The notes beneath the pieces are model-generated. The model made no database searches. It saw only the letters and a program-made list of their open reading frames with translations, and had not been told where the DNA came from. Of a stretch of 64,000 nucleotides of DNA, positions 8,489 to 49,500 are shown piece after piece (within the stretch, counting starts at the first letter, position 1; each line of letters opens with the position of its first letter). A program made the position numbers and the translations under genes. Source of the stretch: Globodera rostochiensis (taxonomy: Eukaryota > Nematoda > Chromadorea > Rhabditida > Heteroderidae); NCBI GenBank assembly GCA_018350325.1, contig JAEVLN010000017.1, positions 1,822,666 to 1,886,665 of the forward strand, written 5' to 3'.

Positions 8489-10255
8489 TTAATTAGAGTA
8501 TGGTGGAGGAGGAGGCGGTGTTGGGGGCGGCGGAGGAGGCGGTAGCGGCGGAGGAGCCCCGTAGCTTGGAGGGGCAGGCTGATACGATGGTGGCGGGGGA
8601 GGAGGCGGTGGTGAGGGAGGCGGTGGTGGTGGAGGCGGTGGAGGTCCGTAGCTTGGCGGTTCTGGAGGTCCGTAGCTTGGAGGAGCAGGCTGATACGATG
8701 GTGGCGGTGGTGGTGGGGGTGGAGGCGGCGGTGGCGGTGGAGACGGTGGTGGTGGAGGCGGAGCCCCGTAGCTTGGGGGTTCCGGAGGTTCGTACGATGG
8801 TGGCGGAGGAGGAGGCGGTGGCGGAGGAGGAGCTCCATAGCTTGGTGGTTCCGGAGGTTCATACGATGGTGGTGGTGGAGGAGGCGGCGGTGGTGGTGGC
8901 GGGGGAGACGGTGGCGGAGGAGGAGCTCCGTAGCTTGGGGGTTCCGGAGGTTCGTACGATGGTGGCGGAGGAGGAGCTCCATAGCTTGTCGGTTCCGGAG
9001 GTGCGTAGCTTGGTGGTTCCGGAGGTCCGTAGATTGGCTGTTCCTGAAGTTCGTCCGATGGTGGCGGAGGAGGAGGCGGCGGTGGCGAAGGGGGAGGCGG
9101 TGGTGGAGGAGGAGCTCCGTAGCTTGGTGGTTCCGGAGGTCCGTAGCTTGGGGGTTCCGGAGGTCCGTAGCTTGGGGGTTCCGGAGGTCCGTAGCTTGGA
9201 GGTTCCGGAGGTCCGTAGCTTGGGGGTTCCGGAGGTCCGTAGCTTGGTTGTTCTGGAGGTCCGTAGCTTGGCGGTTCCGGTTCATACGATGGTGGCGGAG
9301 GAGGAGGCGGTGGTGGAGGAGCTCCGTAGCTTGGAGGTGCGGGCGCATAGCTTGAGTTGGAAATACGTATTTTAAAGGTTTGGGATAAAACGTACCTAGC
9401 GTCACGTCGCCATCTAGGAGCTTTGTATCCTCCATAAGTTGGAGGAGGATGCGGCGGAGGAGGTGGCCTCAAATGTTTTTGTTTTTAATATTTTTTAAAT
9501 TAAACAAAAATTTTACGGCGGTTTCTTTCCACATTCCTTGGGGTAGTTGCACACTTGGTTCACTTGGTCAAAGACAAGGCCATATGGACAATTCAGCTTG
9601 GTTGCAACTCCTCCCGAGCACGCATAATAGATTTTGGACGCACAGTATTTTGGCGCTTGCAAACCGTCACCTTTGCCTAAACGACTTTTTGTTGCTTTAA
9701 TCGTGCCAATTACGGTAACTTACATTTGTAGTAAGGTGGGGGAGGGTAACTTGGCGGCGGCGGGCCGTAACTGGGCGGGGGCGGTGGATGCGGCGGCGGC
9801 GGGCCGTAACTGGGCGGGGGCGGCGGTGGTGGAGGCGGGGGCGGTGGTGGAGGCGGCGGCGGCGGTGGGGGCGGCGGCGGGCCGTAACTGGGCGGGGGCG
9901 GCGGTGGTGGAGGCGGGGGCGGCGGTGGTGGAGGCGGGGGCGGCGGTGGGCCGTAACTGGGCGGGGGCGGTGGTGGAGGCGGCGGCGGCGGTGGGGGCGG
10001 CGGCGGGCCGTAACTGGGCGGGGGCGGCGGTGGTGGAGGCGGGGGCGGCGGTGGTGGAGGCGGGGGCGGCGGTGGGCCGTAACTGGGCGGGGGCGGTGGT
10101 GGAGGCGGCGGCGGCGGTGGGGGCGGCGGCGGGCCGTAACTGGGCGGGGGCGGCGGTGGTGAAGGCGGCGGAGGCGGTGCGCCGTCACCGCTTACGGACG
10201 TTCCCACAAAAAATAGGGAACAAATGACAAATGTAGTCAATGGAATCAAGTTCAT
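8489..10255 (-). CDS. Secreted proline-rich protein with a chitin-binding CBM14 domain
   Basis: Four exons keep phase (10255-9724, 9676-9517, 9467-9396, 9350-8489), predicting 541 aa. MNLIPLTTFVICSLFFVG is a clear signal peptide. Residues about 25-175 are poly-Pro punctuated by SYGPP. Exon 2 encodes a peritrophin-A type chitin-binding module (residues about 180-228) with six cysteines: YCASKIYYACSGG, LNCPYGLVFD, VCNYPKEC. The rest is PPP blocks separated by SYGPPEPPSYG and SYEPPEP units, ending YSN. CBM14 proteins bind chitin in cuticle, eggshell or pharyngeal lining, and the Tyr-rich extensin-like arms suggest a cross-linked matrix protein (inference). The intron 9395-9351 is only 45 bp. The repeats are GC-rich against an AT-rich background and could be mis-sized in an assembly. 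Confidence 0.85.
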
Positions 10256-11068
10256 CGTTGACTAAATTTTAACAATAAAGCGACAATTTAAAATAATAAA
10301 AATATTTAAATTTATTTAATTCTTAATTATTAATGTTGAAATTGTTTGATGAATGATTGACTGAATTATTTGCCTGTCAATGAGCCTTAAATACTCATTT
10401 TAAATATTCTTAAAGCTCGCGAGATTAAAAGTCGCACAATTCCGAAGTCAATTATACACAAAATGCAATGACTAAACCAAATTTTGGCATTTCAATACAT
10501 TTTGAGTGTATTTAGAGCAAAAATTGAAACATTATTCATTGTTGAAACAAAATTTGCTTCTATTCATTCACCTCTTTTATGGAAAAAGGTCAAATTTTAA
10601 AATGTTAACTGAGCGATTAACAAATTTTAAAAACAATCTTTGATTTTCAGCTGCTGAACAAGCGTATTTGGCTGGAAATGTTAATATTAATTTAGTTTCC
10701 TATATGATTTCAAAATTCTATTAAAATCACCCAACACAATTAATTACTTTAATTTTTAACTTTTTTCCCTCCAAATTGTTTATTTTGAACTAATTTTACA
10801 TAAAATAATACTTAATCACTATTTATACGTCATATTTAATAAGTAGAGAAAGGATTTCAGGCATTTTTTTGCCTTTGTTTTGAGAGTTTTTAACCCCAAA
10901 AAAACAATTTTTGATTTATAGCGACTTTGTAGTGTCAATTAGTGCCTATTTTGGACTTTTTTGTGAATAAATGCCCTTTTTGATGTATTATAAATCCTTT
11001 CTCAATTAATAATAATGAATAAGAATAGTTTTTGTAAATGTCATTGGATTGGGTCTTCAAGCTTGCAT
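10256..11068. other. Gap between proline-rich gene and myosin 3' end
   Basis: AT-rich, no convincing ORF. It should hold the myosin 3' UTR near 11068 and the promoter of the proline-rich gene near 10256, but I see no diagnostic motif. Confidence 0.5.
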
Positions 11069-20000: not shown

Positions 20001-23000
20001 ATGAATTTCAAATAAAAATAAAAACATAAATAAAATGAATTAATTACCCGATTGTTTCTTTTCATTGGGAATGATGCAACGAATAAAGTGCGGGTGCGTC
20101 TTGTGCAGCATGTTCATCAAGTTGTTCAACGATTCACGGTAAAGCATGGACACTAAACACATTAGCAGAGTAGAGACCGAATGATCGAGAATCTCGTCAA
20201 CATTTTTCCAGATCTCGATCTTTTTTCAAAATTTCGATGGAAATCTCGATCGACCCTCATGTCCAGGCTCGAATTAATAGTCACCAAAACTTGTGATATT
20301 TCTGTAGACAATTCTTTTTTGTATCGGATTAACAATCATTTTAAAAATATTAAAAAACTTTTTTTACGCTTAGATAGTTTTGCTAAAACAACGGGGACCA
20401 CACATATAAAATTTGTTTGTTTTATTTAACTTTTTTACTATTTAATTGACAATATTTTTACCCGTCATGAAGGAGCCGGATTTGCCCTTCTTTTTGCCGC
20501 CACCACCCGACTTGACGGCTGCCGCCGCTTCTTCTTGCGTCTGGTAATTTGCCCAAAGCTCGCCGATCAATAAATTGCCCTTGGCCCCTTTCATCACAGA
20601 GACCCAAAATTTAAAAAAATATATTAATTTTTATATATATTTATTTATTTAATTGAATTTACCAATGTGTCATTCAACGGGTCCTTGTTCTTCTCCAACC
20701 AATTGGTTACGTTGTAACGCACTAAATAAAATAATATCAGCAAAACTGTTTGTTTGTTTTCTAAGGATAGGTAAAATGTGGCACAATTAATTATTCCTCC
20801 AATGGTACATACAATCTTATAAGTATTATTATTTTATTACATTTTAATGGGGATTTTTTTATTTATAAATTAATCCCCCCCCCCCCCCCACCGGTGCCGG
20901 CGTAGTGGCGCATCGCCAAATGCGCTTCGGCTTGTTTGCCCTTGGGCGGCTTTGGCTTCTCAAAGTTTGGGTGCTTGCCCAAGTGTTGTTCGACCAGCTT
21001 TTGTGCCAATGTGAGGTCGGTCGCTTTTGGCACAATGCATTCCTCGTCAAGCATGGAAATGATTCCTAAAAAATGGGTGCTTTTTATAAATGCAATTTTG
21101 TATTTTGGATTGATTCCTAAAAAATGGGTGCTTTTTATAAAACCAATTTTTTATTTTGGGATGAAACACTAAAGAATCGTTTTAATCGATCCATACGTTC
21201 TTAAGAAAATTAAAGAAAAATTACCCATGGGTTTTTCGATCAGCTCAATGCAAGCCTGCAAGTCCAACCCGAAGTCGATGAATGTCCATGCGATGCCCTC
21301 CCGCGCGTATTCCTCCTGCTCCAGCACGAACATGTGGTGGTTGAAGAACTGTTGCAGCTTTTCATTTACTTAAAATGATTAGTGTTAAACACATATGTAC
21401 TTATAAATATTTGATTTTCAAAAATAAATTTAATGAGATTTAAAACAATAAATATTTGATTTTCAAAAATAAATTTAATGAGATTTAAAACATATAAATA
21501 TTTGATTTTTAAAAAAAATTTATTTGAGATTGAAAACATATAAAATATTTGATTTTTTAAAAATAAATTTGTTTTAGTCGTTTAAGCATTTAATATTTAT
21601 TTTTAAATGTTGTATTCTGATAAAAATTCGGTAATTTTTTTTCGACCCTAATTTATCTTTTAAATTGAGGGTTTATGTAAATATTAATTTTCTTCTTCTT
21701 GTTAAAATTATTTTTCCGAGTTTTAGTGATTGTGACACAACCCGGCGACAAACTAATTGAGTTGACCTATTAAATAAAATCTTTTTATTAATAATTTTCT
21801 AAATTTTATTAAAATCGTCATTTTTTTCTTTCTTTTTATTTCCATTGATCAATAAAATAATCCATAAAAAATGTTGCCTTCCCCAATGTCCATGTTCTTC
21901 AGCAGAATGCTTGATGAATTCTTTATGTCTTGCCATATTTCGAAACTAATAAATCGATTTAAAGATTTGAAACCAATTTATTTGTGCAAATATATTTATT
22001 ATATTTATTTGTAAACAACGATGTCGTCTGGTCTGCTTGATAATTGCATAAACAGCTAATATCTGGAATTTTTTGAAATTTTCATCTCTTATTATACACA
22101 CTAATGCCTTAATATATTGTATAATTAAAGGAAAATGGGAAATATTTTTCTATTTTTGATATTAGCAACAAATGTTCTAAGAAGCAGTTCAACCGATGCA
22201 ATTCGCTCGGTTCTTCAAAATTTCTTCAGATCTGCGGAAATGGACTCAGAAGATTCAACCCATTTAGGACATTCGATTCGAAATGAGTAATATGAAAATT
22301 TTTTGAATCATTTTTAAATACAAAAATATTTGTCTTAGATCAAGCCGAGGCCGCAGTCCACAGGAACTGGACGCTCTCCGAAAGCATTTGCTGTCAATAC
22401 TCAACCAAATTGAGCACGACCTGCACTTGAGGGGCAACGGCAATGTTTGGCTACGCCATGGGGGCCATGGCCAAGCTGTGGACAGGGAATACCAAATGAA
22501 CGAATTGCAACATTTCCGTGACAACATTTTGGCGGCCCCGACAATCAAATCGTTGAAAAAGATTAAAGCAAAATTGCCCACATTGGAAGTGTTAAGTGAC
22601 GACGAAAAAATAGGTTAGCAAAATTCCGGTCCATCAACAACAGCATCAGACACAATTTCTGCAATTTATCTAACTTTTAGGGGTTTAGAAAAAAATTTTA
22701 AATCAATTTATTAAATGTAAAGCAAGTCAGAAAAGATTAGAAAATTTATTTGAAATTTAATATGCGAGTTTTAAATGATAAGCTTTGACTTTTTGGCATT
22801 TAAGAGGTGTGGCATGCGGTGCCGGTATGCCGAATCGGGCTGGACGTGATTCAAAATGTACGTGATCCATGATCATGTCCAGCCCTGATACCGATGGCAA
22901 ATTAGAGTCTTTGATGCATATTAGAGCGATTCGAGACTTGAAATTTACCGAGAACCGAGAGCGAGAAATGACCCCGAGACTCGAGCCCGAGACCCAAAAA

Positions 23001-26000
23001 ACCGAGAAATTTCTCGACTCGGGAACCGAGACCGAGACTCTCGAACAGCTCTAATGCCTAACATTTAAAAGTCGATTCCGGCAGTTAATAATAATTTAGT
23101 AGAAATTTATCGCTCTTAACTGCTTTGAGTGAATCAAGAGTCTCGACCTCGCAACCGCCCGTTTGACAATTTAATGAACCCAAAATATTTTTTGTTTTGT
23201 TGTAGATGCCATTGCACTAAAATCTGAATGGGTCAACGTTTTGGAAGATGCCCAAATGGAATTTGTGCGGGTGGATAAGTGTCGAAAACTGATGAAAAAA
23301 TTTGACGAGGTCCAAATTTTGAACGAAATTGTCAAAATAGCGAAATGGTCTGATGCCTACCATTTCATTTACGTCGATGAGAAGGGCGTACCGTTTGGGA
23401 GAAAATTCAAAAATGCGGCAGAACAAATTGAACGGTATTTAATAGTGGTTTAGAGTAGGGACCGGTGTAATCAAATTTCCGGAGCCGGATTTTCAATTTT
23501 GAAAATCTACCGGAGGGATTTTTCCGGATAAATTCGGGTACGGAAAAAATCCCGAAGGGTCAAAAAAACCCCTGATCAAAAAAGCGGGACTAACGGACTA
23601 AACAAAGATTTCTAAATTTGAAAAAACTGGGGGATCATATAATGGGGATTTTCAGTCTAAAAACAACCATTTCAGTCCCAACCCGCTCTATTCAAGTTTA
23701 TATTTGAGAGAAATGAAAGTTTTTTTTAATTTTGTTAAAATATTTTTATTGTGCCAATTGTTAACATTACGCAATTGTTTTAATGGATTTAAATTCAACC
23801 ATTTTCACTGATTTGAGATGTTGGCACGCACTGGACGAGCACGAATACCCATATAAAATGTTAAAAAACTGTCGAGTACCGAAAAAAGTGGACCGACACG
23901 ACGATTACGTAAATTGGGTCAAGAAAACGAATGGCTTGAGGAAGGGAAAGAGCGCGTTCAAATGCAAGACTTGGACAGTGCGCCAAGAAGTTGAGAAATT
24001 AAACGAAATATTCAAAGCAATTTATGATGGGTCGGCACTTCCGAAACAAATTTGCGCCGAATGGGAAAGAGGCCAACTTTTTTATAGACGGCGTAGAAAT
24101 AACAACGCTAATCGAATGGTAGAGCAGAAAAAAACGACTGAAATAAGCGGTTTGAACTCCAAAATTACCGAACTAAATCCAAAATCGGATGATTCTGATA
24201 GGTATACAGTAGATTCAAAATCGGATACGGTAGAAATGAATCCAAAATCGGATTTTTCCAATGGAAGTACGGTTGATTCGGACTCGGACTCGGACACGGT
24301 AGAAATGAATCGAAAATCGGATGTTTCCGATGGAAGTACGGTCGATTCGAAATTGGACACAGTAGAAATGAATCCAAAATCGCCCAAGCCGAGCCCAACC
24401 AAAATGAAAAAGAGAATTGAGACCAGTACGTATGATTCCGATAGAAGTACGGTCGATTCGAAATCGGATACAGTAGAAATGAATCCAAAATCGGATGTTT
24501 CCGATGGAAGTACGGTCAATTCGGAATCGGATACAGTAGAAATGAATCCAAAATCGCCCAAGCCGAGCCCAACCAAAATGAAGAAGGTAGCTAAATCTGA
24601 TTCCGATTCAGGCCTATTCATAACAAGAAGAGGAATAACAGATCGAAGTAAAATCCCACATAGTTCGGATACGATAGCCTCCCGATCGGATACGATAACC
24701 TACTACAGTAGTAGTCCAAGAAAAAAACAAACAAAAGTCACAAAGAAGGACGCTTCATTGCTGCTGTCTTCACCCAATGTTTCTGGTACAAATCGTTCAG
24801 CTCCATTTGAATCTTCTTCAACATCGTCTTCATCAAAATCAACGTTCTTCTCAAATTCGGCGACAAACACATATTATCCTTCACGGTTACCGACGTCGTC
24901 CCCATTGACATCATCAAACTCCTCCAGCAGACGGGTTCGACCTGTATCAGCAACACCACCAACATCAACAACAAAAGTGTCGTCCTTGTCAAGCAAACAA
25001 AGTCCATCCCCATCGACATCATCAAACTCCTCCAGCAGACGAGTTCGACCTGTATCAGCAACACCACCAACATCAACAACAAAAGTGTCGTCCTCGTCAA
25101 GCAAACAAAGTCCATCCCTTCCATCGTCATCATCAGATTCCTCCAGCAGACGAGTTCGACCTGCATCAGCAACACCACCAACATCAACAACGACAAAAGT
25201 GTCGTCCTCGTCAAGCAAACAAAGTCCATCCCTTCCATCGTCATCATCAAACTCCTCCAGCAGACGAGTTCGACCTGCATCAGCAACACCACCAACATCA
25301 ACAACGACAAAAGTGTCGTCCTCGTCAAGCAAACAAAGTCCATCCCTTCCATCGTCATCATCAGATTCCTCCAGCAGACGAGTTCGACCTGCATCAGCAA
25401 CACCACCAACATCAACAACGACAAAAGTGTCGTCCTCGTCAAGCAAACAAAGTCCATCCCTTCCATCGTCATCATCAGATTCCTCAAAAAGTGATGCAAA
25501 ACAATCAAACAGAAGAGATGATCAGGACGAGGCCATTCGCTACTTTACGCCCGAAGAAGATTTGACGCCAAAACGCCGATTTCCATCATCAATTGATGCG
25601 GACGAGGAATACAACAGAGGAGATCAAGAGGTCACCAAAATTGTTAATAATTTTAATTATGATTTTTGTTTTTAGCTCAGAAAAGTACCCATTTTTGCTG
25701 CTCGACACCCGGACTTGTGGTTAAATTATGAGCAATTAATCGATTGGAACTGTTCATCATTAAAGGTCGGATTTTTCAAGAAACGGGCGGAATCCAACCC
25801 GATAGTATTTGAATCCGAGTGTCAAAATGTTAAATTTGGAAGTACCTTTGAAATAGGCATTCTAAATCCTAATGAATTTTTTATTTTTGATAAAACAGTT
25901 CGGAATAACACAATTTTAGCGAAAAAAAACAATATTTTTAAGCTTTTTTCTGACTTATTGTAAAAAAAATAAAAGATATCAACTTAAAAAAAGGAACCCC

Positions 26001-29000
26001 ACTGATTAAAACAATATTTATATGGGACGGATTGATATGCAACAAAAATGGCCAAATTATGAATTTAGCAACAAATTTTTGCCAAAAATATGCGTTGAAA
26101 TCCCCAAAATTTTGTTTTTATTGCATTTCCGTTAAAGAAATTTAGTTTAAAAAAAGGCAAATATATGCAAAATATGCATTTATTTTCAATCAAAACGTAA
26201 AAACCCCTCTTGTTTTGATTGATCTCAAAAATTTATTGCACTAATTATGCAAAAAGCATTTTTAGGGTGAAGAAAGGCGTCGCTGTGAGGGCTGGGAGGC
26301 CATTTATCGGGCCATTAAGCGATACATCAAATTTATATCCATTCAAAATACACCCAAAAATGACGCTTTTTTCGCCAATATAGCAGTTCAGCCCAGATTT
26401 ATGCCAGCTCTTCAGCAAATTGACAGTCGGAGTACAGAAAATACAGCAATTTTGAATCAAAAAATGCCAAAATTGGATGGCAAACCGATGTATGAACAAC
26501 GAGCTGGCATGGAGCTGACCCAAGTGATGCTTTTGGTCAGAAACGTGCACAAACGGCACGGCACAATTACGGAACCGGTCAGATTCCTGAACAGAGAACT
26601 TGTGGAAAAGGTGCGGGGCTGGGCTGAATTTTTAGGCAACTTTTTGAAAAGCCCGCCACACAAGCGGACGTATCGCCAAATTGATGAACACAAAATTGAA
26701 GAGTAAGTATTTTTTTGAAATAAAATCAGTTACCGTATTCACTCTTGTAAATTCCACACTCTCTAATAAAGCCGCCCTTTCTGAGGAGGTTTTGAAAAAT
26801 AATTCCACATGTGGAATTACAAGAGTGAATACGGTAAATAGAATTAATAATAATTCAGTGCTCGTCACCTGCTGGAATGGATTAGCAAAAACAATTTTAT
26901 TCTCGAAGGGATGGCCGAAGCAAAACTGATCCCTGAACCGCCATGGCCCCAACTTCATGGGCACGGTTCTGCTGCGGCTGTACAACAGAAGCAAATTGGA
27001 CCAACAACAGACATCAACGAAGTATTTATTTTCTTTTATTATAAAGTACTTAAGTATATAAAATTGTCTTTTTCATTTAAAACTAATAAATTAAATAAAT
27101 AAAAGAAAAGACAAAACCGACTTAAAACGCCTATAGGCACAATACCGAGACGCGCTCAACTTTGCTCGCACGCGGAGCCACAAATTGTGGCTGTCCGATC
27201 AACCAAAAAACGTGGCATGGAAGTGCCAAGAAATGAGTAGCAAAATGCGCAAGCGTTGCATGGATTGGGCCTCCATTCATTGGGCAATTCGGCACTATAT
27301 CAAATTCTTGACGGCAATTGAAGGCAAAAGTTTGGCGCATTTGTCCGAGTCTGAATTGCCTAAAATTGCTCTGTTCCCTAAACTAAAGCCGAGCATTGCC
27401 CGAGGCCGTGTCAAATCGGAGGAAAGGCTGCAGAGACAGCAACCGTTTTTTGAGGTCGTTGTGCTAAAAAATAGACAGTCGAGAATAGTGATCGGAATTA
27501 TATTCACTCGGGATCCCGATCCCAATCAGTATTACAGATTTTGTCCGAGATCAGTCAGCAAGTATTACAGAGAATAACGAAAATACAAAAACCGGTACTA
27601 TCCGGCTCGAGAACAATGAGTTAGTTCGTTTCCAAACCGAGACTAAGAACCCACTTTAAATTATTGGGAATGATCAATAGCATATTAAGCCCATATATTT
27701 AATTTTATGAAGAGAAAAAGCCTAAGAAAATCTCTTAAGCAAAATAATTCAATTTTACAATTATTTATTTTACTTTCTATTTGCAGCACAACGGTTTTAT
27801 GGAATTAACCCAAGTGATGCGCAAGGTTGAAAGCGTGTACGAATTGCGCAATAGCCAGAACTTTCCGAAGCCCCTCCTTTTCATGAACTTTGATTTGATC
27901 GACAATGTTTGGGGATGGGCGAAATTTGCGGCAGAACCCGGAAAATATTTGTCTTATCAGAAAGCGAATGGAACTGTGGTCAATAGCAACGATTCCAAGC
28001 AGTTCAAGTCGCTTCTCAATGAGTAATTTTTGAAAAATTTATTAAAGGTTAAAAAAAATGCCTGGCCAATTATAGCGGTGTATATTTAAGCCCCCAATTA
28101 ATACATTTTTATCCGTTTTTTGCTTTGTTGAGCTGGTCAAATCACACCAAAATCAGTCAGATCATTTTTGTTAAAATAAAACATTTAGTAAATAATATTA
28201 AAAATAGCATTAAATTTGACATTATTTTAGAGCGCAATCTGTTCTGAAACATGTTCTTGGCAAAATGCAAGAAAATTGGCTCTTCCCAAATTTTGACCAA
28301 AACATTTTGACCCCTGCGCCAATGCCTTTTATTGATACAAAAATTGATGATGAAAATAGACTGGGACGGAATCTTGGCAAAGCAATGCCAAAAGCCGAAG
28401 ACGATCCGAAAAATGATCGAACTGTGGGATTTTTTTTTTTTTGATAATTACCAAATTTAAATTCCAAAATATTGAATTTGTTTTTTAGAATACTCTGTAC
28501 CATGACGCAATGTCAGACTTCAGTCAGACATTGTCAGATGAAGCGGAACATTTGTCTGAAAAGCAACACCATCTGGTGCGAACAAATAACAAACAGAATT
28601 TTTAATTTTACAATTAATTCCCCCCCCCCCCGGGGATATCTCAAAAAAGGGGGATATCCGCCCAGATTCCCGCATATTTTGGCTGCAACTCGTTCAAGAC
28701 TGGATCCTTTTGGCTCAAATTTTCTTAAACCACCCGATAAAAGTGCCGGTTGAACTGTTGGTCTTTTATTTTTTAAATGTCTGCCAAAATAAATTTTTAA
28801 ATAATTTATAATATATATTTTTTTCAAATTGCATTTTTATTTTTCAGCATTCCGAAAGTTCCTCCGTAAATTCGATGAAAAGGGAGCGCAGAACCGAGGC
28901 AAGAGAAATTTTGCGCAAATTGCGCTCCGGTAAAGTGAGTTTCCAAAAGAATGGCGAGCACTATCCGCTGAGTCCCACAGAAATCACAGAAATTTTGGCC

Positions 29001-32000
29001 AAAATTGACCAGGCAAACAGTGAAAAAGAAATTGAAGAAGCGGCGGCAAAGTTTCCGGACGGAGAGGAAAAAGTGAACAAAAAAGTGAAGGAGGAAAATC
29101 ATCGCTATAAAAAGGCAAAAAATGAAAGTGATCACTTTTTGTCGTCCGTGTCGGCACAACAAAAATGGCAACAAATTGAACGCACATTGCGCGAACAGTT
29201 AGAAAAAAGAGGTCCGAATTTAAGAAAAAAAAAATGAATAAAGATTATAAACTATTAGAGCCAGCCCGGACGATCGAGATTTTCAAATGAAATCTTTTAT
29301 CGACAAAATTTTATCGAGATCTTCGAGATTTTTTGAGATTCTGATCAAAATCCGCGAGTCCGGACTCTAGTCTCCAATAAAATCCAAATAACCTACAATT
29401 ATTGCTCCTCGTTTTATTATTTCTTTAAACATTAATTATTTTGTAATAAAAATTCTACAATAAATGAACAAATAAATGTAGGGACCGACCGCTACATAAA
29501 TCGCCAAAAAATTGCGGACCCTTATGATGCCGGGCAGCTGATAATACGTCAAAACGACGAAAAGCGGATCATTTTGATCCCGCGGGAAGAGGAAATTATT
29601 CGGACAGTTTACCACGTGGCCAACCCCGAGGGGACGCACGGAAAACTCCTGGGCAAAAACATAAAGAAAAGTTGGAAAAATGCCAAAAAATGTTTGAATT
29701 TGATGGACGACCAAAATGCAGAAAAAAGTGTTATTGAATTCTGCAAAATGGCCATTGAGGCCGAGGATCGTGCCGAAATATACGAAAAATGGGCATCCAT
29801 CGGCAAAGAAATGCAGCGAGGAATCCCACTAATTTACATGGTGAAATTAACGAATTTGCACAAAATTGGTTATAAAAACAATTATTAATTTATTTTTTAA
29901 TAATAAATTATTCGGTTTTAAAACTGTGCAAATAGCTATATAATTTATTGTGAATTTTTTTTATTACTAAATATATAATTAAAGAAAAATGATGAGAAAC
30001 CAATGAAAGTGAATGAATTGCTCCTTTTGTTGGAAAAAGCATTCAACGCACTCGTAAATGGTGAGAAATTGCCATTATTGCCAAGGCCAGTCAAACGAAC
30101 CGAATTATTGGCCTCAAATTATCATCATAAAATAGACCAACAACGGCACAAAACTAATCGAAGAACGGCACCAAGTAACATTTTGTACGAATAATAAAAT
30201 AATAAATTTTTTATTTAGATACAAACTCTATTTTATTTATTGGATTTTAAAAAATGAATAAATTAATTTATTTAATTACTAAAAGGTAGTAAAAAATTTT
30301 ATGAATAAAATTTAAAAACTATAATTTTGGTGTATTTTAAATGCAATTAAATATATAATTTAGACATCGCAAAAAGTTACGCCATTGCCGATCAGCTGGG
30401 AGGGCGAATTCCGGTTGATTATGGACAACTCAAAGGCTACGGTAAACGGACACCAGCTTATTTTGGTAAATATTTGGTTTTTTTTCCAAAATGTTCATTC
30501 AAAATTTTATTTTAAAATATTTGTAACCTTTTAAATTAAAAAATAAATAAAGATTATTATTCGTTAGCATTTCTATTTGAACATTTAGTGAACATTTTTA
30601 GACAATCATAAGCTGGTGGAACAAACAGAAGAAGAAGAAGAAAGAAAGGCTTCAGAGGTGCGCAGTAAAGCGGCCATTAAGCAAATTGGGCGTTACCAAA
30701 ACAAAGAAATCACAAATTCGCCCCAACACAATTACAGGGTAATTAGAGTTCAAATTAGAGCAAAAATTGATTAGGTTTTCAAAATTTTGCACCTTCAAAT
30801 TTAAAACTCTATCGAAAAAACTATTAAAATATCACAAAATTTCTGGCATTCTCGATCTGATCATCAAGGGTTGGTATATCCTAGCATCATCTTATACTGA
30901 TTCTTAATGATAGGCAAATTGAATTAATTATTTATGACTCTATTTTAGGGGTATGATGGACCGTCTGAAGTTGATAGCCCTACAAACAGAGAAAGTCCAA
31001 ATTCTGGTAATTTTTCTATAAATGCCAATTTTGAGGATAAATGCCTATTTTGTCATTATTGAAATTAAAAAAATGGTATCCTAAAAATCTAGATTAAAAT
31101 ATTTAAATTTTGGAAACAAAATGAAAGGAAAATTTATTTTAAGATGTAAAGAACAACAAAAAAAGCGTTGCACATAATTTTTTTGAGAATATTTATCAAA
31201 AAAATAAGCACAACCAAATGGAAAAGAGAAAGGCTGAAGAAGAGGCACACAAATTGGCTATAGACAAAAAGAAAGCAGAGGAAGAGCAAAGAAAGCGGAA
31301 TTGGAATGAAAAAGAAAAAGCCCGATTGACAGAACAGAAGAAGAAGAAAACAAATGAAAGGCACAATGAGGAGGAGCGAAGGAACAGAGAAAAAGAGTTG
31401 CACAGAGAGTGGGAGAAAAAGGAGGCGGGAGCAATGAGAAATGAACGAGAAAAACACATTGAAATGGAAAACAGAAGAGAAGAGCTGATGGAAAGAGAGA
31501 AGAAGAAGGCAGAGAGAGAAAGAAAGAAACAGTTCCGGGAAGAGATGATAAAAAGACAAGAGACATGGAACACAAAATCGATAAGAACGGGCGAAGGGGC
31601 AGGAGGTCAGAGAAAGCAAAATATAAGCTAATCAACAGAGACTGTCTCTGGCAGACAGTGTCTTAACTAGAGTAGGCCGGGAACGGGATTTTTGGTAAAA
31701 ACTGAGATCGGGATTGACTGGGATCGTAAAAGCCGGGATCGGGATTGACCGGGATTGTAAAAGCCGGGATCGGGATCAGCATCTCGAACCGGGATCGGGA
31801 GTTCGCTTTTCCCACCCCTTTTGGTTTTTTGATTTCCTCCAACCAAAATGAAATTAATAACTTCTAAATTGTCATCAAATATTTTTTTTATATTGAAAAA
31901 AGTTAAAATAATTTTTAGAATTGTTTACACCACTGTAAATGTTCAGAGAAAAGTATAATTTACATAGTCGGTGAACTGAACCACACCACAGACACACTTA

Positions 32001-35000
32001 AACTGCATCATACACCACAACCAAACTGCACATTAGCGCTCAAAAATCTCGGGATTGAGACTAAAATGCCCGTTTTTGGGACTGTAATTCCCTCCCTGAA
32101 TCCCGATTTTTGTTCAAATTATTAATTTTTATTTGTTTTATAAAAGAGTAAAATTTTTTTTTAAAGTTTCTCAGACAATATTAACTCTATAATTTTTTTT
32201 CTAGCAAAGCCGAAAAGCCATAACATTGGCTCAATGTACTGAATGAGGGGAGGTTCGTTTGCATTTTGAACATTTTATTTTATTTTATGATCATTTTATG
32301 ACTGATCATCAATTATTTTGTTTTACATTTTTTTTGTCTGTCTCTTTTTTGATTGGGGGTTGGGCAAATTCATACATTTCTTATATTTGTGGTATAAATT
32401 TTTTATTTGTGATGATTATGAAAAACATTATTATGTTAATATTGCGTTGTTTTTAAATTTAATTAAAAAAATATGTATTTATTTAATTATAAAACGGTTA
32501 AACCAACCAAAGTTAATCCACAGCTGCTCAAAACTGTTCAACTGAAATTTGTTACGTCAGTTTATCATTTCAATAAATTTTCTTACAGTTAAATTTTAAA
32601 AAGTTATTAAATTCTCAAATTGAATTGAATTTAATATACACTTTCAAAAAGTTTTTGTTTATCCAAACCCTAAATACTATTCGGGTGCTCAGCCTCGAAG
32701 TTTTTATGTATTTGGTGTTTATTTAAATATGAAAGGAACAAAGGCTTACATCGAAAATTTCGAAGCCGGCAATGTCGAGCACTCCGATGAACGAGTCTCG
32801 ATTGAGCCCTTTCTGGTCGAGAGTGACGTTGCACTTCTTCACCAACCAGTCGAAGATGCGCGCGTACAACGCCTTGGCCATGGCGCCGATGGCCCAGCTG
32901 ACCTGCTCCATGTTCTGCCCCTTGGACACCCATTCGTTGCCGACTCGCACCCGTGGCTTCACCAACGCGTTCAGAAGCATCTGCAGAAAATTTGAAATTC
33001 CTTTAATAATTTTTCCGCACGGCAAATAAAAATTTTATTATTTTTAATTAAAACAAATTCAAATTGCTCCTGCCTCTGTGTCCACACCGAACATATCCGA
33101 CGCAGCTGCAGCTTCTTCAGTTTCATCTGCTTCGGCTTGCTCTTCACGCGGACGCTGCTTGAACTTCATGTTCCCTAAAATTTCAAAAAATTCAAATGGA
33201 ATTTTCAAAATGTTTGTTTACCCATGTGCATTATGCCAGACATCATCCGATAACAGTCCGACTTCTCTTGTTCATTGAAGTTGAGCACATCAAATGCTTC
33301 ATCGGTAAGTTTGAACTCTTCCTATATTAAAAAAATAAAAATAATATGTAATTAGGAAAACAAACCAAAAAAGAGTTATAAGAAAATTAATTTTAGATAT
33401 AAACTCCGTTTTTGAATGTTTTAACTTAAATAAAAGATCTACAAATTATTGAAGAAAAACTCAAGAAAGTTTGTCACCAAAATAATTATTTTACCTTATC
33501 ATCGACTCCATCGATGGTTAGCTCAGCCTGGGCCACAAAAACGTATTCCTTGAGTGGCTTAGTAAGCTTGAGCTTCTTCTTCAACTCGGGCTTAAAGTCG
33601 GAGAAAATTTGGTAGAAAATGTGGTAGCAACGTTCGCCGGGTGCTTGACGAATTACACGAGACTTTTCGAGCAAATCTAAATAATAATAAAACTTTTTTT
33701 TAAAAAGTTAAAATTAGTTTATTTCATTGTTGACTTTTGAACAAAAGTTTTTGCAAAACCAAAAAAAGCAAGCGTTATTGTTTTTAAGTTTCATTTAAAT
33801 TGGCCTAACAGTGCTCAATGTCACACGAGGCCACACGTCCGGCACGATTGAAATGAATTCGTATGAATTTGCCGAAACGTGACGAATTGTTGTTTCGCAC
33901 GGTTTTGGCATTGCCAAACGCTTCCAACACCGGATTGGTTTGGACCTAAATTTTAAAATCAAATTTAAATATGTATATAAATTACGGGGAATTTTGAAAA
34001 TTGAAAATTCCGGAATTTCCGCTCAAAACGGTAAATTTTAAAATTTCCAATATATATTATATTATATATAAAATATAATTATTGTATGAAAATTTCCTCA
34101 CAATTTGGTCCTCCAAAGTGACCGTATTCTTCGGCTTAGCCTCCTCAGCACCAGCGGCCTCCATTTGACTGGCACCGACAGAAGCGAAATATGCGATTAC
34201 TTTCTTTGTATTTTCAGTTTTTCCAGCGCCCGATTCGCCTGCATAATTTTTTTTTGATAATTTGCTTAATTATTTAAATCTGTAAATAATTTATTTTATC
34301 TTTTTATTAGCAAGCATTATTCTACCGTAACAAATACGTTTTAGTAAAGCTAGAATTAAATTAATATTGCACAAAGTCTTTTTAGTCAATTACGTTGAAC
34401 TAAAAAATATATTTTTTTATTGAAAATAAAGCGAATTACCTACCCAATACAAATTAAATTTCAACATTTTTTATGAATTAGACAAAATTACCGACCGGTG
34501 ATCAGCATGGACTGATTTTCACGATTCTGCAGCATGTTCCGATAGGCTTCATCAGAGACGGCGAACAAATGTGGCGGCATTTCATTTCTACGCTTTCCCA
34601 TAAACATTCGTGCCACCGTGTCAGTGTAAATTGGCAATCGCTTGTACGGGTTGATCACCACACAAAAAAGGCCAGAATAGGTCTGAAATACGTACAAAAA
34701 AAAGATTAACCTTTATTTCGGAACCAATTAGTTAAAAGAATATTTTAATAAAACACATATTTAAGTAAAATAAATAAATAATAAAATCTATTTTTAAATA
34801 AAATGCCATAAAAATTAAGTGAAAAACAAATTACATTCTCATTTTTCTACGAGTACAAGTTTTTAATTTTTTCTTTCCGTATGACTTAAATTTATCTTAA
34901 ACGCTCCAAATTTTTTTAATTAAAAACTTATAAAATTAAAAAATTTTTACATAAATGAGCATAGCCTTGTAGCGCGCTCGCAGATTGTAGAGCACAGAAG

Positions 35001-40429: not shown

Positions 40430-41944
40430 TTAAGTAAAAAAAGATTTAAAATCAAACCAAAATGACAGAAATTTTAGGGGTTGAAGGAAAAAAGTTTTAG
40501 TTATAGTATATTGAATGCCCGGCATTTGCATTTCCCCAAATTCTTCGCCGCCTCCAATCTGCGAAGCCATATCGTTGATGCGGAGCATCAATCGCAGAAG
40601 GTCGGTGTCGTGGCAATGCTCCGCGATCACCGATGCCCCGCTTTGGAGAAACCACGTGCCCTTTCGCGGATTGCGGATAGACACGTGGTGCGGCGAAGTC
40701 GAGAACGCCAGCAGCATGTCCATGTCCTTCGGGACACGGACCAGAATTTGTTGAGATTCGTGGTGCCGTTTGCGTAACTGTCGTCGTGGGCTGTTCCTTC
40801 TGCGCCCAGCAGATGTGTCAGCACTTGTGACAACAGAGTCGCGCACATGCATGCCGTAGTCCACCAAGCCTGAAAATGATATCAAAAATTATAAATTTGT
40901 TTTTAAATTTTACACAATACTTCAATTATTATTTTGTTTTATAAAAAAAAGCGTGCAATAAATAAAAATTATCTCACCTCCCCTGCAAGCTGCAACCAAA
41001 AACTAAATAAAATCATAAATTTAATTGAAAATAAAATTTGTAAACATATATTATTAATAAATAAAAAAATACAATTTTTGGTTTATTTATGAGCAGTGGG
41101 CAGTTTTCGGCGTTGAGTCGGCCGATGAAAGCGTGTAGATTGACGACGTTGTCGTCACACCATAAATTCCCTCATAGCGCCCATGGCTCATGAGGCATAC
41201 GCGGTGCTTAATTAAAAATTTTATATTTAATTTTTTAATAAATATTTGATTTAAAATATTTTATTATTTTCAAAAGGCACACATCACATACCTTTGTACT
41301 TGCTCGTGCTCCGACCTCCGGGAAAACGTTTGTACGGTTTCCATCACCTAAATCAAAATAAAATTATTCAACAAATTTAAAAATTTTAAATTACATCAAA
41401 ATAGTTTAAGCTTATTTTAATAAATTCATATTCAATTTATTACCTGTGCCGTTAAGTTCCTCTTGTACAACACGCGATAGTGCAGCTTTGTCAGCAGCGT
41501 CCGAATTTTGGCGCTGTCGGCCCAAGAGCCATGGCGTGTTGACAACTGCCGAAAATGCACGTTCTCGATGACAAGTGCCATCCCTCGAGGCCGTTCGGTG
41601 TTCGCGTAAATCTGAAAAAATTTATTTATAAAAAAAATTGGTTTATAATTCATTTACTTACTTTTCACCCAGTTCGATCCCGACCGCAGTTCAAAAACAG
41701 ACGCGTAACTCCTCTGTTGGCAGCCTCTAACAGACCTCAATCCGAAAAGTCGGAATCGTAGTCGATTTCCGAAACTTCCGACACGCTTGAGTCGTCTTCA
41801 TCCGACTCAGAATGGTGCTTAATAGTTTAAAATAATAAATTTATATATTTATATTCTTTGAATAAATTGATTTTTTGAACTTTAAATACCCACCTTTGAA
41901 CGGGCATGCTTGCCATGTTGTCTTCGACCTTGAGCTCCCGACAT
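40430..41944 (-). pseudogene. Caspase-like gene, probably broken
   Basis: Cysteine protease of the CED-3/caspase family. From ATG 41944: MSGAQGRRQHGKHARSK, then an acidic exon (SESDEDDSSVSEVSE). The p20 exon has ERPRGMALVIENVHFRQL and KRNLTAQ. A short exon has METVQTFSRRSEHE. Next comes LMSHGRYEGIYG with the catalytic His, then NAENCPLLINKPKI, a small exon with AACRG around the catalytic Cys (the family consensus is QACRG), and p10 with LLAFSTSPHHVSIRNPRKGT to the stop at 40430. Between SHGRYEGIYGV and the following DDNVVNLHAFIG the frame shifts by one base within a single exon. The acidic exon runs into TGA where the right-arm copy reads GGA. I therefore call it a pseudogene; sequencing indels would be the alternative. 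Confidence 0.65.
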
Positions 41945-42092
41945 CGTCATGAATATTTTCTAAAATTGGCAGCAAAAATTAAATTATTTCTATGATTAGC
42001 TATAAAAATTTAAAAGTCTGGCAAAGCAAAATGACGGGTATATGGTTGAATAAAAGAATCTTTCATCTATTTGAAGAAAAATCATACGGTGG

Positions 42093-42305
42093 TCAAACGA
42101 AAATTTTCTGGAATGACATCAATCGCAGAAAGTCGGTTTCGTGGCAATGCTCCGCGATCACCGATGCCAGGCTTTGGAGAAACCACGTGCCCTTTCGCGG
42201 ATTGCGGATGGACACTTGGTGCGGCGCAGTCGAGAATGACAGCAGCATGTCCTTGTTATTCGGGACACGGACCATTGTTGAGACTCGTGGTGCCGTTTGC
42301 GTGAC
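42093..42305 (-). pseudogene. Caspase p10 fragment
   Basis: A second, partial copy of the p10 exon of the neighbouring gene: KDMLLSFSTAPHQVSIRNPR, TWFLQSLASVIAEHC, then divergence after DFLRLM. No p20 exons accompany it. It lies just upstream of the main caspase-like locus in the same orientation, so it is a truncated tandem duplicate. Confidence 0.75.
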
Positions 42306-43160
42306 TCTAAAATGATATCAAAAATTAAAAAAGTTTTTGGAAAATGAATGCAAATTTCAAAAATGCTTAACAATTTTTGAATTATTTGGCATAATGTTAC
42401 TTAAAAATGACCATAAAATGTGATTTTTCGGCAAAAGTTTCTACGCAGAAATATAACGAATGAAGCTATGTTTACTTAAATTTTTTGGTTTTAAAGAAGA
42501 AATGTCGAATTTGATGCTTTTTGGTGCTCAATATGCTTTTTTCACGTTCTGATGATGCTTTTGAAAATTTTGAGATCGGAGCCCTGCTATTATATGCCCT
42601 TATTTCACGTTTTTTAGTCCCTAAAAAAATTAGAAAATCTAAGTTTTTCTTTTTGAAATATCAAAATGAAAAAAACTTTGATCATTATGGTGCATTTTTT
42701 GGTTTTATTACATTTTTCTTTATGAATTTTGGCCAAAAAAGTCACTTATAGTTAGGTACTATTTTACGCACCAAAAAATAAAAGACTAAAAAATAGTCAC
42801 TAAAAACTTGAAAAAAACGATCGTTGTGCCTAAAAAAAACTCGATTTTTGTGCTTTTCAGAGCAAGGCGCGTTCAGGAAAAAAATAGTAAAAAAATACTA
42901 AAAATTCCAGCCCTATTTATAAGTATTCTTATAGAAAATATCCCACACAAATTATTTAAGTTTAATTTCATAAGAAATAACAAAATAATTTGCGTAAGCA
43001 TTCATAAATCAATTAACGGAAATTACAACAAAAAATACATACATATAATCCAACGTAAAAATGTTTTATAAGCTGCGCAATATTATGAATAAACAAATAT
43101 TTTTTTATTTTCTTCGTATTTATCAAAAGGCCCAATTTAATTTTTAATTATTTATTTAAG
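42306..43160. mobile_element. Repeat-derived gap upstream of left membrane-RING gene
   Basis: Contains the words cactaaaaacttgaaaaaaacg, ttcagagcaaggcgcgttcag and ccaacgtaaaaatgttttat. These recur in reverse at 52840-53140 and in part at 63085-63300, so a dispersed repeat is included. No gene seen. Confidence 0.55.
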
Positions 43161-46571: not shown

Positions 46572-49500
46572 ATGTCTGGTATGTGGCGCTTTCTCTCGCT
46601 GAACATCATGCTTGTCAAGCTGCTACACGCACCGATCAGCGCATTCGATGTTGACATTGCCGTTCCTGAAGAGTTTTGTTGCGCAAAACCGGATAATTTA
46701 TCTAATTTATTTAAAATAAATTATAAAATTTTAAATAATTTTTTGACTCTAGCAAGAAGGCCGAACAATTTGAAATTGCTGGCATTGGCGTTCTTGGCAC
46801 TTTGTCGGAGGCCGCGTTAGGCGCTTTTTTGTCGACTTGGCTGCCCGAATTGACGACAAACAAATGCGACCAGAGGAAGAAAATGGAATCTTGCGGCAAA
46901 TTCGTTTGGGGCACGTGTGTTGAAGAAAACAGCGGGATGGTTACCAACGACGACCCGTGCTGCATGGACGGCTTCGAATGGCAATGTTGTGCCAAGGCAA
47001 TATTGTTAATGCAAAGGGTGGTCCAAAATTCCCTTAATTAGTTGAATTTAAATTATAAAGGGCTGAGTTTTTTATGTTATTTTTAATGTCTTTTTGTAAT
47101 TTAAAAAAAAAATCTTAAATTTTGAAGTGAATGAATTTTTTAAAGCATTAAAACCTTTACCGGTTCCCTTCCTTGCCTTTTTGCTTTTATAGCCTCCATT
47201 TTCCACAACAAAAAATTCGTATTTAAAAATAACAAATAAAAACGGAGGCCGATCATTTAATTGCTGCTGTTTGGGCCTTATATTTGACTAATCTTTTACT
47301 GCTCGAACATAAGGCAAAACAAATCCATGGTCTGAAAGGGGCCCAAGACCAAAAAGGTCAAACTCCTAACGACCTCCCGATTACTTTGAACTAGGGTTGC
47401 TCCCCGATCCCGAATCCCCGACATTTTTGGTCGGGGGTTTTCATGCCCAGAATCTTGCGATTCCACTCCCGAAGGGTCAAGGAGCAACCCGACTTTGAAC
47501 TATTCCACGGTATGTATGTGTAGGTGATCACTATTTTGAGTTTTACCGTCATTTTACATGACACTATGTTGTGGGGGTATGAATCTGAACTTTTATAAAC
47601 ATAATTTTATTCTACATTATTTAGGAAATTAAATTGCTCAATGTGGTATGTATGTTTTGGGGTTATTTGTAGTTTTAAATTTTATTTAATACAAAATTTT
47701 GTAGCATTGTCTGAGAGCCGGCTTCTTTAAATTTAATTATTGCAACTGCGGTTCGTGTTTTCTTAGTTCCACTCCTTGGACGATATGGAACTGTGCGTGT
47801 TGTACAATTGAAGGGCCGAAATGTGCGACGGTACGTGTGTTAAAAATAAACATTTAAATTTCTTTTTGTCAAATTATTTATTATAATTTGATAAATAGAG
47901 TCAGCATTTTCAGGCAATAAAATCCTTGAAATAAGGTCTCAAACATGCGCAAAAACCCTGTGAAATCGGTAATAAAAGTACCAAAATAGGGTTCCATGAC
48001 TTTTCGTCAATGGACTTTTCGTCAACGGACTCTTCGTCAACGACTTTTCGTCAATAGACTCTTCGTCAACGACTTTTCGTCATTGGACTATTCGACAACG
48101 ACATTTCGTCAATAAGAAAGAATTAAAAAAAACAACAAATTTCAATTAAATTTAAGTCAACACCAAATTTTCAAGTCTAGGGTTATTCGGGGCGAAGAAG
48201 CCGATTCTGGCCTCCATTCGACCAATTTCGAACCCTGGACCCAAATTCAAATGTTATTCAAAATTTCAAAAATTTTTCAGAAATCAATTTTAGCCTTCAA
48301 AAACACGCTTAAAATCATCCAAAAAGTACAATTCGATCATTACTTGCTGTTTTGTTGTAATGATGTTTTTGAATGATTTTAAGCCCTTTGTTGCATTTTA
48401 AAAATTTTTTCAAAAAATCATAATGTTGAAAATCATAATCAGATGATGTCTATATGATAAATCTGTTGTCATATTCGTGATCAGCAACCTCGATAACCCC
48501 CGAGTACTTCTCAGAATTGCTTAAAACCCTCTTAAAAATTTTTTTGTGCGACAAATAAACTTAGGTAACTATTCCGAAAAATTGTGTTGGCTTAAATTTA
48601 ATTAAATTTATTGTTTTTTTAAATTCTTTCTTATTGACGACATGTCGTTGACGAATAGTCCAATGACGAAAAGTCGTTGACGAAGAGTCCATTGACGAAA
48701 AGTCGTTGACGAAGAGTCCGTTGACGAAAAGTCCATTGACGAAAAGTCGTGCCACCCCAAAATAGGCACTAAAAAGTCGCTTTAATTCAAAAATGTTCGG
48801 AATAAACGCTTTTTGGGCTTAACAACTTTCAAAGCATATTCGCAAAAAAACAAGGTACTGCGTTATTTTTTTATTTTGCCATTTAAATCAAATTTAATTT
48901 TGTCATTTTAAAGAAATGCGTTTCGCGCCCGACCTCTGACACTGAATGCCCGTGGGAATGTTGTCTTCGAGGCGGTGACAAATTAAAATGCAAACAAAAA
49001 CAAAAACTTTTTTCAGATGTAACCGATCGCAGTTTAACATGCGGATGCTGTGACAAAGAATTGGCATTGCTTTGTGATCAGTTATGTCCCGACAAAAAAC
49101 GAATTCATATAAATGAAAAAATATTTAAAATTACAAAAAAAAAAATAGGGATTAAATTTCATAAGGAGCCCAAAGAGATGCTGCTTTCGGAGGACAAGTG
49201 CAAGAAGATTGTGGAGAAACATTGCCATTGCCGTTGGGCAATGTGCCATGAAAGGGCCGGGTGGGGTGCCAGCCTTTGTTGTCCAGATGGCTATGACCTG
49301 GTGTGCTGTACATCGGTATGAATTTTTTGATTGTTTTTTTTGCAGTCAAAAATTCCCCATTTTTTTGTTAATTTAGGTTGAACAAATTTTATCTTTCGAA
49401 ACGATTTTTTGGCAACCTTTTTCAAGCAGCATTCTAAAACAAAATCAAATGATTTCTGAGCAGAATTCTTTTTTGTTAAAATATATATAATTTGATCACT

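What the first reader, a model, noticed from the sequence alone, without database searches (positions are those of the whole stretch)
22135..31631. A putative 1,900-residue secreted repeat protein nested antisense in a myosin intron
Eighteen exons join with no phase conflict across 9.5 kb. Separate-looking ORFs become one because an internal repeat spans the junctions: the end of exon 5 plus the start of exon 6 aligns with the intact exon 8, with equal spacing from W to C (WNC...RRRC against WKC...RKRC). The layout is signal peptide, block A, Ser-rich expanding repeat, domain B twice, block A again weakly, charged coiled coil. I recognise no known family.
Basis: partly seen in the sequence, partly recalled or inferred. 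Interest (0 to 1): 0.8.

Follow-up and report, generated by a model that had tools for sequence, protein, structure and literature searches.

The report
Nested Globodera-only repeat protein gene
Inside a large intron of a muscle myosin gene of a potato-cyst-nematode relative, on the opposite strand, lies what looks like a real many-exon gene for a large repeat protein that was found elsewhere only in Globodera pallida; most of the proposed gene holds up, but its first three exons may belong to a separate small gene.

Summary
The observation largely holds. An 18-exon, frame-consistent model (22135-31631, 1,896 aa) lies inside one 11,139-bp myosin intron (21369-32507, minus strand). New evidence: the one relative found, a Globodera pallida protein (UniRef A0A183CGN7), matches from mid exon 6 through exon 17 (740 of 815 residues) and keeps 11 of 11 junctions, 6|7 to 16|17. 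The internal repeat is real (B1/B2: E 4e-17, z 26) and picks the 5|6 junction out of 48 donors. Exons 4-17 as one gene: about 0.9. Not secured: exons 1-3 may be a separate small gene, because a second signal-peptide-like ATG at 23713, just behind two TTTCAG sites, fits exon 4 in phase; exon 18 has no outside support and no AATAAA/ATTAAA within 800 bp after its stop. The database name "ULP protease" is not borne out. No family matched the pieces searched; both structure models are unusable. Function is inferred: probably a secretory-pathway, mucin-like multidomain protein. It fails the promoter criterion for dorsal-gland effectors (0 DOG boxes).

The parts
21369..32507 (-). Myosin heavy chain intron that contains the gene; flanking myosin exons end at 32508 and resume at 21368
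   Evidence: Pfam Myosin_head on 32723-33034 (profile 302-379) and 21169-21369 (profile 390-444); a short exon at 32541-32508 reading LNSFEQLWINF fills the gap, (boundaries read by eye)
22135..22286 (+). Exon 1: ATG in AAAATG context, hydrophobic N-terminus (signal-peptide-like)
   Evidence: no outside support; codon usage not coding-like
22339..22613 (+). Exon 2, block A part 1
   Evidence: codon usage +0.096; no homologue
23206..23434 (+). Exon 3, block A part 2; reads on to a stop at 23451-23453 if not spliced at 23434
   Evidence: join to exon 4 weak
23713..23759 (+). Rival first exon: ATG with signal-peptide-like MKVFFNFVKIFLLC, donors after 23750 or 23759 in phase with exon 4; TTTCAG at 23650 and 23670
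23818..25630 (+). Exon 4: block A part 3 (C-x16-C), Asp/Ser repeats, then Ser/Thr/Pro-rich 36-38-residue tandem repeats
   Evidence: 636-codon open frame; repeat spacings 108, 111, 114, 114 and 132, 174, all multiples of 3
25676..25765 (+). Exon 5: start of B1 (W..C)
26266..27021 (+). Exons 6 (26266-26702) and 7 (26859-27021): rest of B1
   Evidence: P0001 match starts at residue 920 of the model, in mid exon 6: 72 of 79 and 50 of 55 residues; repeat against B2
27137..28423 (+). Exons 8 (27137-27454), 9 (27787-28022), 10 (28231-28423): B2
   Evidence: P0001 100 of 106, 70 of 78, 56 of 65 residues; 8+9 joined score 176 against B1, 101 and 85 apart
28489..30174 (+). Exons 11 (28489-28575), 12 (28848-29211), 13 (29482-29840), 14 (29985-30174): block A'
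   Evidence: P0001 27 of 29, 113 of 121, 110 of 120, 55 of 63 residues, same junctions; C-x16-C as in exon 4
30364..31006 (+). Exons 15 (30364-30465), 16 (30602-30738), 17 (30949-31006)
   Evidence: P0001 30 of 34, 40 of 46, 17 of 19 residues
31144..31631 (+). Exon 18: Glu/Lys/Arg-rich coil and stop
   Evidence: phase fits; not in P0001 (1 of 8 columns); minus strand also open there; next ATTAAA only at 32462

Best explanation
A protein-coding gene, found elsewhere only in G. pallida, sits on the plus strand inside a myosin heavy-chain intron. Exons 4-17 (probably to 18) encode one large protein: a Ser/Thr/Pro-rich, mucin-like tandem-repeat stretch, two copies of an undescribed cysteine-pair domain (B), a diverged copy of block A, and a charged tail. 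Shown by sequence: open frame, most joins, duplication, conservation in a second Globodera protein. Inferred: it enters the secretory pathway (a signal-peptide-like start exists at 22135 and again at 23713); the Ser/Thr/Pro repeats act as an extended, glycosylated spacer; and the B and A domains, each held by one disulfide, are binding heads at a body surface, gut or gland-secreted matrix. Its place inside the myosin intron needs no functional link to myosin. The confidence is for the whole statement including secretion; for exons 4-17 as one real gene it is about 0.9. It holds whether exons 1-3 belong to this gene or not.
For: P0001 keeps 11 of 11 junctions 6|7 to 16|17; 740 of 815 residues identical outside exon 18. 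Substitutions are more conservative than random single-base changes (mean BLOSUM62 0.12 against -0.34, sd 0.18; 4 of 1000 random sets as high). B1/B2 E 4e-17, with introns 6|7 and 9|10 both in phase 2. 5|6 join 2 of 5000. Exon 4 repeat units keep frame. Of 11 cysteines eight fall into C-x10-C twice and C-x16-C twice; the other three are C168, C268, C298. Weak donors occur in the myosin gene of the same window: of 11 donors read by eye, GTGGGG, GTGAAG, GTTGGT, GTTAAA, and the large intron has an AAG acceptor.
Against: No expression data could be seen. P0001 is presumably itself a gene prediction; it begins at a Met inside exon 6 and ends before exon 18, so it supports neither end, and it has an 11-residue insertion five residues before junction 6|7. 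Codon usage is weak: 9 of 12 exons 6-17 score above zero when left out, wrong frames often score as high, and exons 1, 4 and 5 score -0.19, -0.07, -0.24 against -0.10 (sd 0.07) for non-coding. Four of 17 donors are GTC; none of the 11 myosin donors is, and the unusual Globodera donors reported in PMC4901422 are GC with an otherwise good consensus, so they do not explain these. Net positive charge and five RRVR motifs would also suit an intracellular protein. By 19-residue hydropathy the exon-1 start reaches only 1.19. SignalP was not available.
Confidence: 0.45

Rival explanations
1. Two genes, perhaps an operon-like pair: gene I = exons 1-3 (22135-23453, about 224 aa, signal-peptide-like); gene II = a short first exon at ATG 23713 spliced to exons 4-17 or 18. 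(Compatible with the best explanation for exons 4-17.)
For: ATG 23713 gives MKVFFNFVKIFLLC; the TTTCAG sites on the plus strand of the intron are 23650, 23670 and 28842 (the last is the exon 12 acceptor), none before exon 1; donors after 23750 and 23759 are in phase with exon 4. Exon 2 and exons 2+3 show no significant likeness to A' (833 and 106 of 1000 shuffles).
Against: Exon 3 adds to the exon 4 match with A' when joined (240 of 5000 shuffles), and exon 3 alone reaches 19 of 1000, though in a register that overlaps exon 4's match. Start 22135 has the AAAATG context reported for Globodera, 23713 has GAAATG. No AATAAA or ATTAAA between 23454 and 23712, only GATAAA at 23527. The 3|4 phases agree.
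Confidence: 0.4
2. The protein is intracellular (nuclear or cytosolic), the hydrophobic start being misassigned; the Asp/Ser repeats are phosphorylation sites and the RRVR repeats nuclear signals.
For: Net positive charge in each of six blocks and RRVR in five places; exon 1 scores non-coding; the database name points to an intracellular enzyme.
Against: Two signal-peptide-like starts; C-x10-C and C-x16-C pairs; the enzyme name is not borne out.
Confidence: 0.25
3. A dorsal-gland secreted effector of the parasite.
For: Found only in Globodera in the searches made, signal-peptide-like start, expanding repeats.
Against: 0 DOG boxes within 500 bp of either start (one ATGCCA lies at 23206, about 505 bp before 23713), whereas PMC4901422 asks for two or more. 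No second relative in the length ranges searched; the own assembly could not be searched.
Confidence: 0.1
4. A SUMO/Ulp1-type cysteine protease, as the UniRef name says.
For: Name of A0A183CGN7.
Against: No C48 match in Pfam at E up to 1, no PDB match at E up to 10, no [DN]C[GSA] site in P0001, which has four cysteines in all (motif recalled).
Confidence: 0.03
5. Chance open frames joined by permissive splicing.
For: Sites were chosen to fit; eight of 17 donors are not GTA; codon usage is weak.
Against: P0001 and the B1/B2 repeat.
Confidence: 0.02

Closest known systems
UniRef A0A183CGN7 (P0001), Globodera pallida, 'ULP_PROTEASE domain-containing protein', 840 aa
   Same: Matches mid exon 6 through exon 17, 740 of 815 residues, same 11 junctions, its four cysteines conserved
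   Different: Lacks exons 1-5, the first half of exon 6 and exon 18; has an 11-residue insertion before junction 6|7; its name is not supported by a domain match
DOG-box dorsal-gland effectors of Globodera (PMC4901422, passages seen)
   Same: Signal-peptide-like start; no 19-residue window above 1.4 hydropathy in the model
   Different: No DOG box within 500 bp of either start; expression unknown
Mucin-like secreted proteins with Ser/Thr/Pro tandem repeats (general class, recalled)
   Same: 493 residues with 29% Ser, 11% Thr, 9% Pro, in part tandem units
   Different: Also carries two B domains and block A', which match no family in the libraries searched; secretion not shown

Membership tests
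Ulp1 / C48 peptidase | C48 domain by profile | tested here: not met
   Pfam, P0001, E up to 1; 17 exon pieces, E up to 1
Ulp1 / C48 peptidase | catalytic Cys in a DCG-like site (recalled) | tested here: not met
   none in P0001; in the model one NCS at 848-850, which is part of the B repeat
DOG-box dorsal-gland effector | two or more ATGCCA within 500 bp upstream of the start | tested here: not met
   0 for start 22135 and 0 for 23713; definition from PMC4901422
DOG-box dorsal-gland effector | signal peptide, no transmembrane segment | tested here: inconclusive
   hydropathy only; no SignalP
DOG-box dorsal-gland effector | parasitic-stage expression | not testable with these tools
   no expression data held
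Nested antisense gene | lies wholly in one intron of another gene, opposite strand | tested here: met
Mucin-like repeat protein | Ser/Thr/Pro-rich tandem repeats with frame-keeping spacing in an open frame | tested here: met
Mucin-like repeat protein | O-glycosylation and secretion | not testable with these tools
   needs protein data
Any Pfam, NCBIfam or PHROGs family | profile match at the family cut-off | tested here: not met
   Pfam: 17 exon pieces and P0001. NCBIfam: P0001, exons 2, 3, 4. PHROGs: P0001, exons 2, 3, start of 4. Best E 0.016 (a PHROG of unknown function); no Pfam or NCBIfam match reached its cut-off. Exons 1, 5 and 18 were not given to NCBIfam or PHROGs

The most novel reading that the evidence does not exclude
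Blocks A and B are new protein domains born inside Globodera, duplicated within one gene (B to B, A to A') and carried on an expanding mucin-like spacer as a secreted surface or host-interface protein. The gene, or an operon-like pair of secreted-protein genes, is lodged antisense in a muscle myosin intron.
Probability: 0.3. Interest if true: 0.6.

Novelty: new member of a known kind. Interest (0 to 1): 0.4.

Why it matters
It gives a well-supported case of a lineage-restricted gene built by internal domain duplication, filed in a database under an enzyme name that its sequence does not support, and with a public model that seems cut short at both ends. If the B and A domains are new folds in a secreted protein, they would be a compact test case for how parasite lineages make new secreted proteins. 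Nested antisense genes and lineage-restricted orphans as such are common (recalled), which limits the surprise.

Tried and rejected
Family searches of exon pieces and P0001 gave no significant match. PDB sequence searches of the B part, P0001 and exon 13 gave nothing credible; block A was not searched against the PDB. A likeness of exon 13 to the integrase H2C2 zinc-binding motif (seen by eye, recalled) was dropped because Pfam did not list that family at E up to 10. Structure models of P0001 as a single sequence (pLDDT 38.1) and of the B core from three rows (pLDDT 39.2) are unusable, so no fold search was run. The scan of viral contigs found no relative (7 pattern matches, none confirmed). 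The block A search found none with E up to 10 among 2516 candidates of about 300-950 aa, so a 224-aa or a much longer model would have been missed. The first search drew its words from the first 500 of 812 residues; the A' search scored only the 7994 candidates sharing most words. Codon usage was too weak to settle exons 1-5. The alignment of P0001 with 13 window exons by MAFFT was misplaced for several short exons and was not used for counts; the pairwise alignment was. Paper searches listed nothing recognisable as this gene (listings with the start of abstracts); only PMC4901422 was opened, passages only.
Full report
WHAT WAS CLAIMED. Eighteen exons on the plus strand, 22135-31631, join into one secreted repeat protein of about 1,900 residues, antisense in a myosin intron, of no known family.

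GENE MODEL. With GT-AG sites I rebuilt 18 exons giving 1,896 aa with no internal stop (site table). The choice matters: an earlier trial with an exon-14 end at 30184 broke the frame, and the donor after 30174 (CAA|GTAACA) restores it. Because sites were picked to fit, phase agreement alone proves little. Nine of 17 donors are GTA, one GTT, three GTG and four GTC; three acceptors are GAG, AAG and AAG. In the myosin gene of the same window I read eleven donors by eye, not checked by alignment: seven GTA, two GTT, two GTG, no GTC; the acceptor of the large intron is AAG. GTG and GTT donors are therefore ordinary here, GTC less so, although two of the four GTC donors (8|9, 12|13) lie at junctions that P0001 shares. 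A Globodera rostochiensis genome paper reports 3.46% GC/AG introns, the highest for any nematode, with an otherwise good CAGG[T|C]AAGT consensus (PMC4901422, passages seen); none of the 17 donors here is GC, so this does not explain the weak ones.

NESTING. Pfam finds the myosin head in 32723-33034 (profile 302-379) and 21169-21369 (profile 390-444), both minus strand. The gap between them is filled by a 34-bp exon at 32541-32508. The intron is therefore 21369-32507, 11,139 bp, and contains the whole model.

OUTSIDE SUPPORT. An 812-aa query (exons 5-14; words from its first 500 residues) against 5.8 billion proteins returned one protein with E up to 10 among 4506 candidates: P0001, UniRef A0A183CGN7, Globodera pallida, 840 aa. 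It runs from residue 920 of the model, in mid exon 6, through exon 17 in the same order: 740 of 815 aligned residues are identical (8 further columns in exon 18 do not match: 1 of 8), and 11 of 11 junctions 6|7 to 16|17 are kept. Four gaps separate the two proteins (11, 1, 2 and 3 residues, all extra in P0001); the 11-residue one lies five residues before junction 6|7 and leaves that boundary slightly open. The 82 differences (7 of them the non-matching exon-18 columns) are more conservative than random single-base changes: mean BLOSUM62 0.12 against -0.34 (sd 0.18), 4 of 1000 random sets as high. The DNA of the relative was not at hand, so dN/dS could not be taken. P0001 is presumably a prediction; it starts at a Met inside exon 6 and leaves the model at the exon-17 donor, so its ends look cut (inference). 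The query for block A (residues 1-335 of a 544-aa query) found none with E up to 10 among 2516 candidates, and the query with P0001 residues 425-840 found only P0001 itself among the 7994 candidates scored. Within the window no further copy turned up (tblastn; one weak match at 41077-41190, E 0.5).

INTERNAL REPEATS. B1 (exons 5-7) and B2 (exons 8-10): 29% identity over 150 columns, E 4e-17, z 26, 0 of 300 shuffles. Both carry C-x10-C, and introns 6|7 and 9|10 share phase 2. Exon 7 against exon 10 alone is not significant (635 of 1000 shuffles). Exon 5 by itself is not significant (80 of 1000). Exons 8+9 joined score 176 against B1, apart 101 and 85. Exon 5 has no start codon before the B homology and its frame opens right behind the stop that ends exon 4's frame, so exon 4 is its natural partner. 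Exon 4's repeat units are spaced 108, 111, 114, 114 and 132, 174 bases, all multiples of three, while an array elsewhere in the myosin intron (21405-21569) is spaced 45, 46, 47. Block A against A': z 5.6, 0 of 2000 shuffles with the window's A', and z 5.8, 2 of 2000 with the G. pallida A', but blastp E only 0.012-0.015. The signal sits in exon 4's start (z 3.8, 0 of 1000); both have C-x16-C. Exon 2 gives z -0.8, exon 3 z 2.7 (19 of 1000, in a register overlapping exon 4's match), exons 2+3 z 1.3.

THE OPEN START. Exons 3+4 reach 67 against 53 for exon 4 alone; 240 of 5000 shuffles of exon 3 do as well. If unspliced, exon 3 ends at a stop at 23451-23453. At 23713 lies an ATG reading MKVFFNFVKIFLLC, with donors after 23750 and 23759 in phase with exon 4. 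The TTTCAG sites on the plus strand of the intron are 23650, 23670 and 28842, the last being the exon-12 acceptor; that TTTCAG is the splice-leader-type acceptor is recalled. Exon 1 has no such site in the 120 bases upstream. Against two genes: no AATAAA or ATTAAA lies between 23454 and 23712 (GATAAA at 23527 does), and start 22135 has the AAAATG context that the paper reports while 23713 has GAAATG. Both N-termini are as hydrophobic, without Asp/Glu, as about 2% of open ATGs in the window (17 and 16 of 812), so each alone is modest evidence. I put one gene from exon 1 at about 0.5 and two genes at about 0.4.

THE OPEN END. Exon 18 fits in phase but is not in P0001. After its stop the next AATAAA or ATTAAA is at 32462; nearer variants are AATGAA at 31847 and TATAAA at 32139.

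OTHER TESTS. Codon usage trained on exons 6-17 is weakly coding: 9 of 12 of these exons above zero when left out, but wrong frames often score as high; exons 2, 3 and 18 at 0.096, 0.030, 0.025; exons 1, 4 and 5 at -0.194, -0.073, -0.241; non-coding mean -0.10, sd 0.07. DOG boxes within 500 bp: 0 for each start. Families: no match at a cut-off in Pfam, NCBIfam or PHROGs for the pieces given, none in the PDB for the B part and P0001; four matches at E 0.65-0.86 for exon 13 are not credible. Both structure predictions are unusable. The 'ULP_PROTEASE' name finds no support.

HOW IT MOST LIKELY WORKS. Shown by sequence: an open, duplicated, Globodera-conserved gene in a myosin intron. Inferred: passage through the secretory pathway, a glycosylated extended spacer, and disulfide-held binding domains; place and partner unknown. 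The dorsal-gland effector reading is disfavoured by its promoter, not excluded. The species is probably a Globodera distinct from, or a diverged strain of, the UniRef G. pallida (inference from 91% identity).

CHANGES ON RE-CHECKING. Mended: P0001 covers exon 6 only from its middle; the GC donors of the paper do not account for the weak donors here; exon 3's own score, the blastp E of A against A', the missing polyadenylation signal after exon 18 and the limits of each search are now told.

Noticed in passing
40430-42317, minus strand: Caspase (Peptidase_C14) pieces: 40430-40885 (E 3.9e-13, profile 146-233), 41432-41653 (E 4.5e-8, profile 1-51), 42093-42317 (E 7e-12, profile 151-204); the C-terminal part occurs twice, suggesting two tandem caspase genes
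   Followed up: partly
9513-10261, minus strand: Pro-rich (SYGPPPPP) open frame with a hydrophobic start (9710-10261) and, in the adjoining open frame 9513-9719, a chitin-binding CBM_14 domain (E 2.4e-10); possibly one secreted protein
   Followed up: partly
26730-26837: Perfect 21-bp inverted repeat with 66 bp between the arms inside intron 6, MITE-like
   Followed up: no
47998-48113 and 48633-48748: Arrays of the same short unit in opposite orientation about 520 bp apart, like a foldback element
   Followed up: no
2254-4185: 67-copy array of a 29-bp unit, 93% matches
   Followed up: no
UniRef A0A183CGN7 (P0001): Named ULP protease, but no C48 domain or catalytic-site motif was found; possibly a misleading automatic name
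   Followed up: yes
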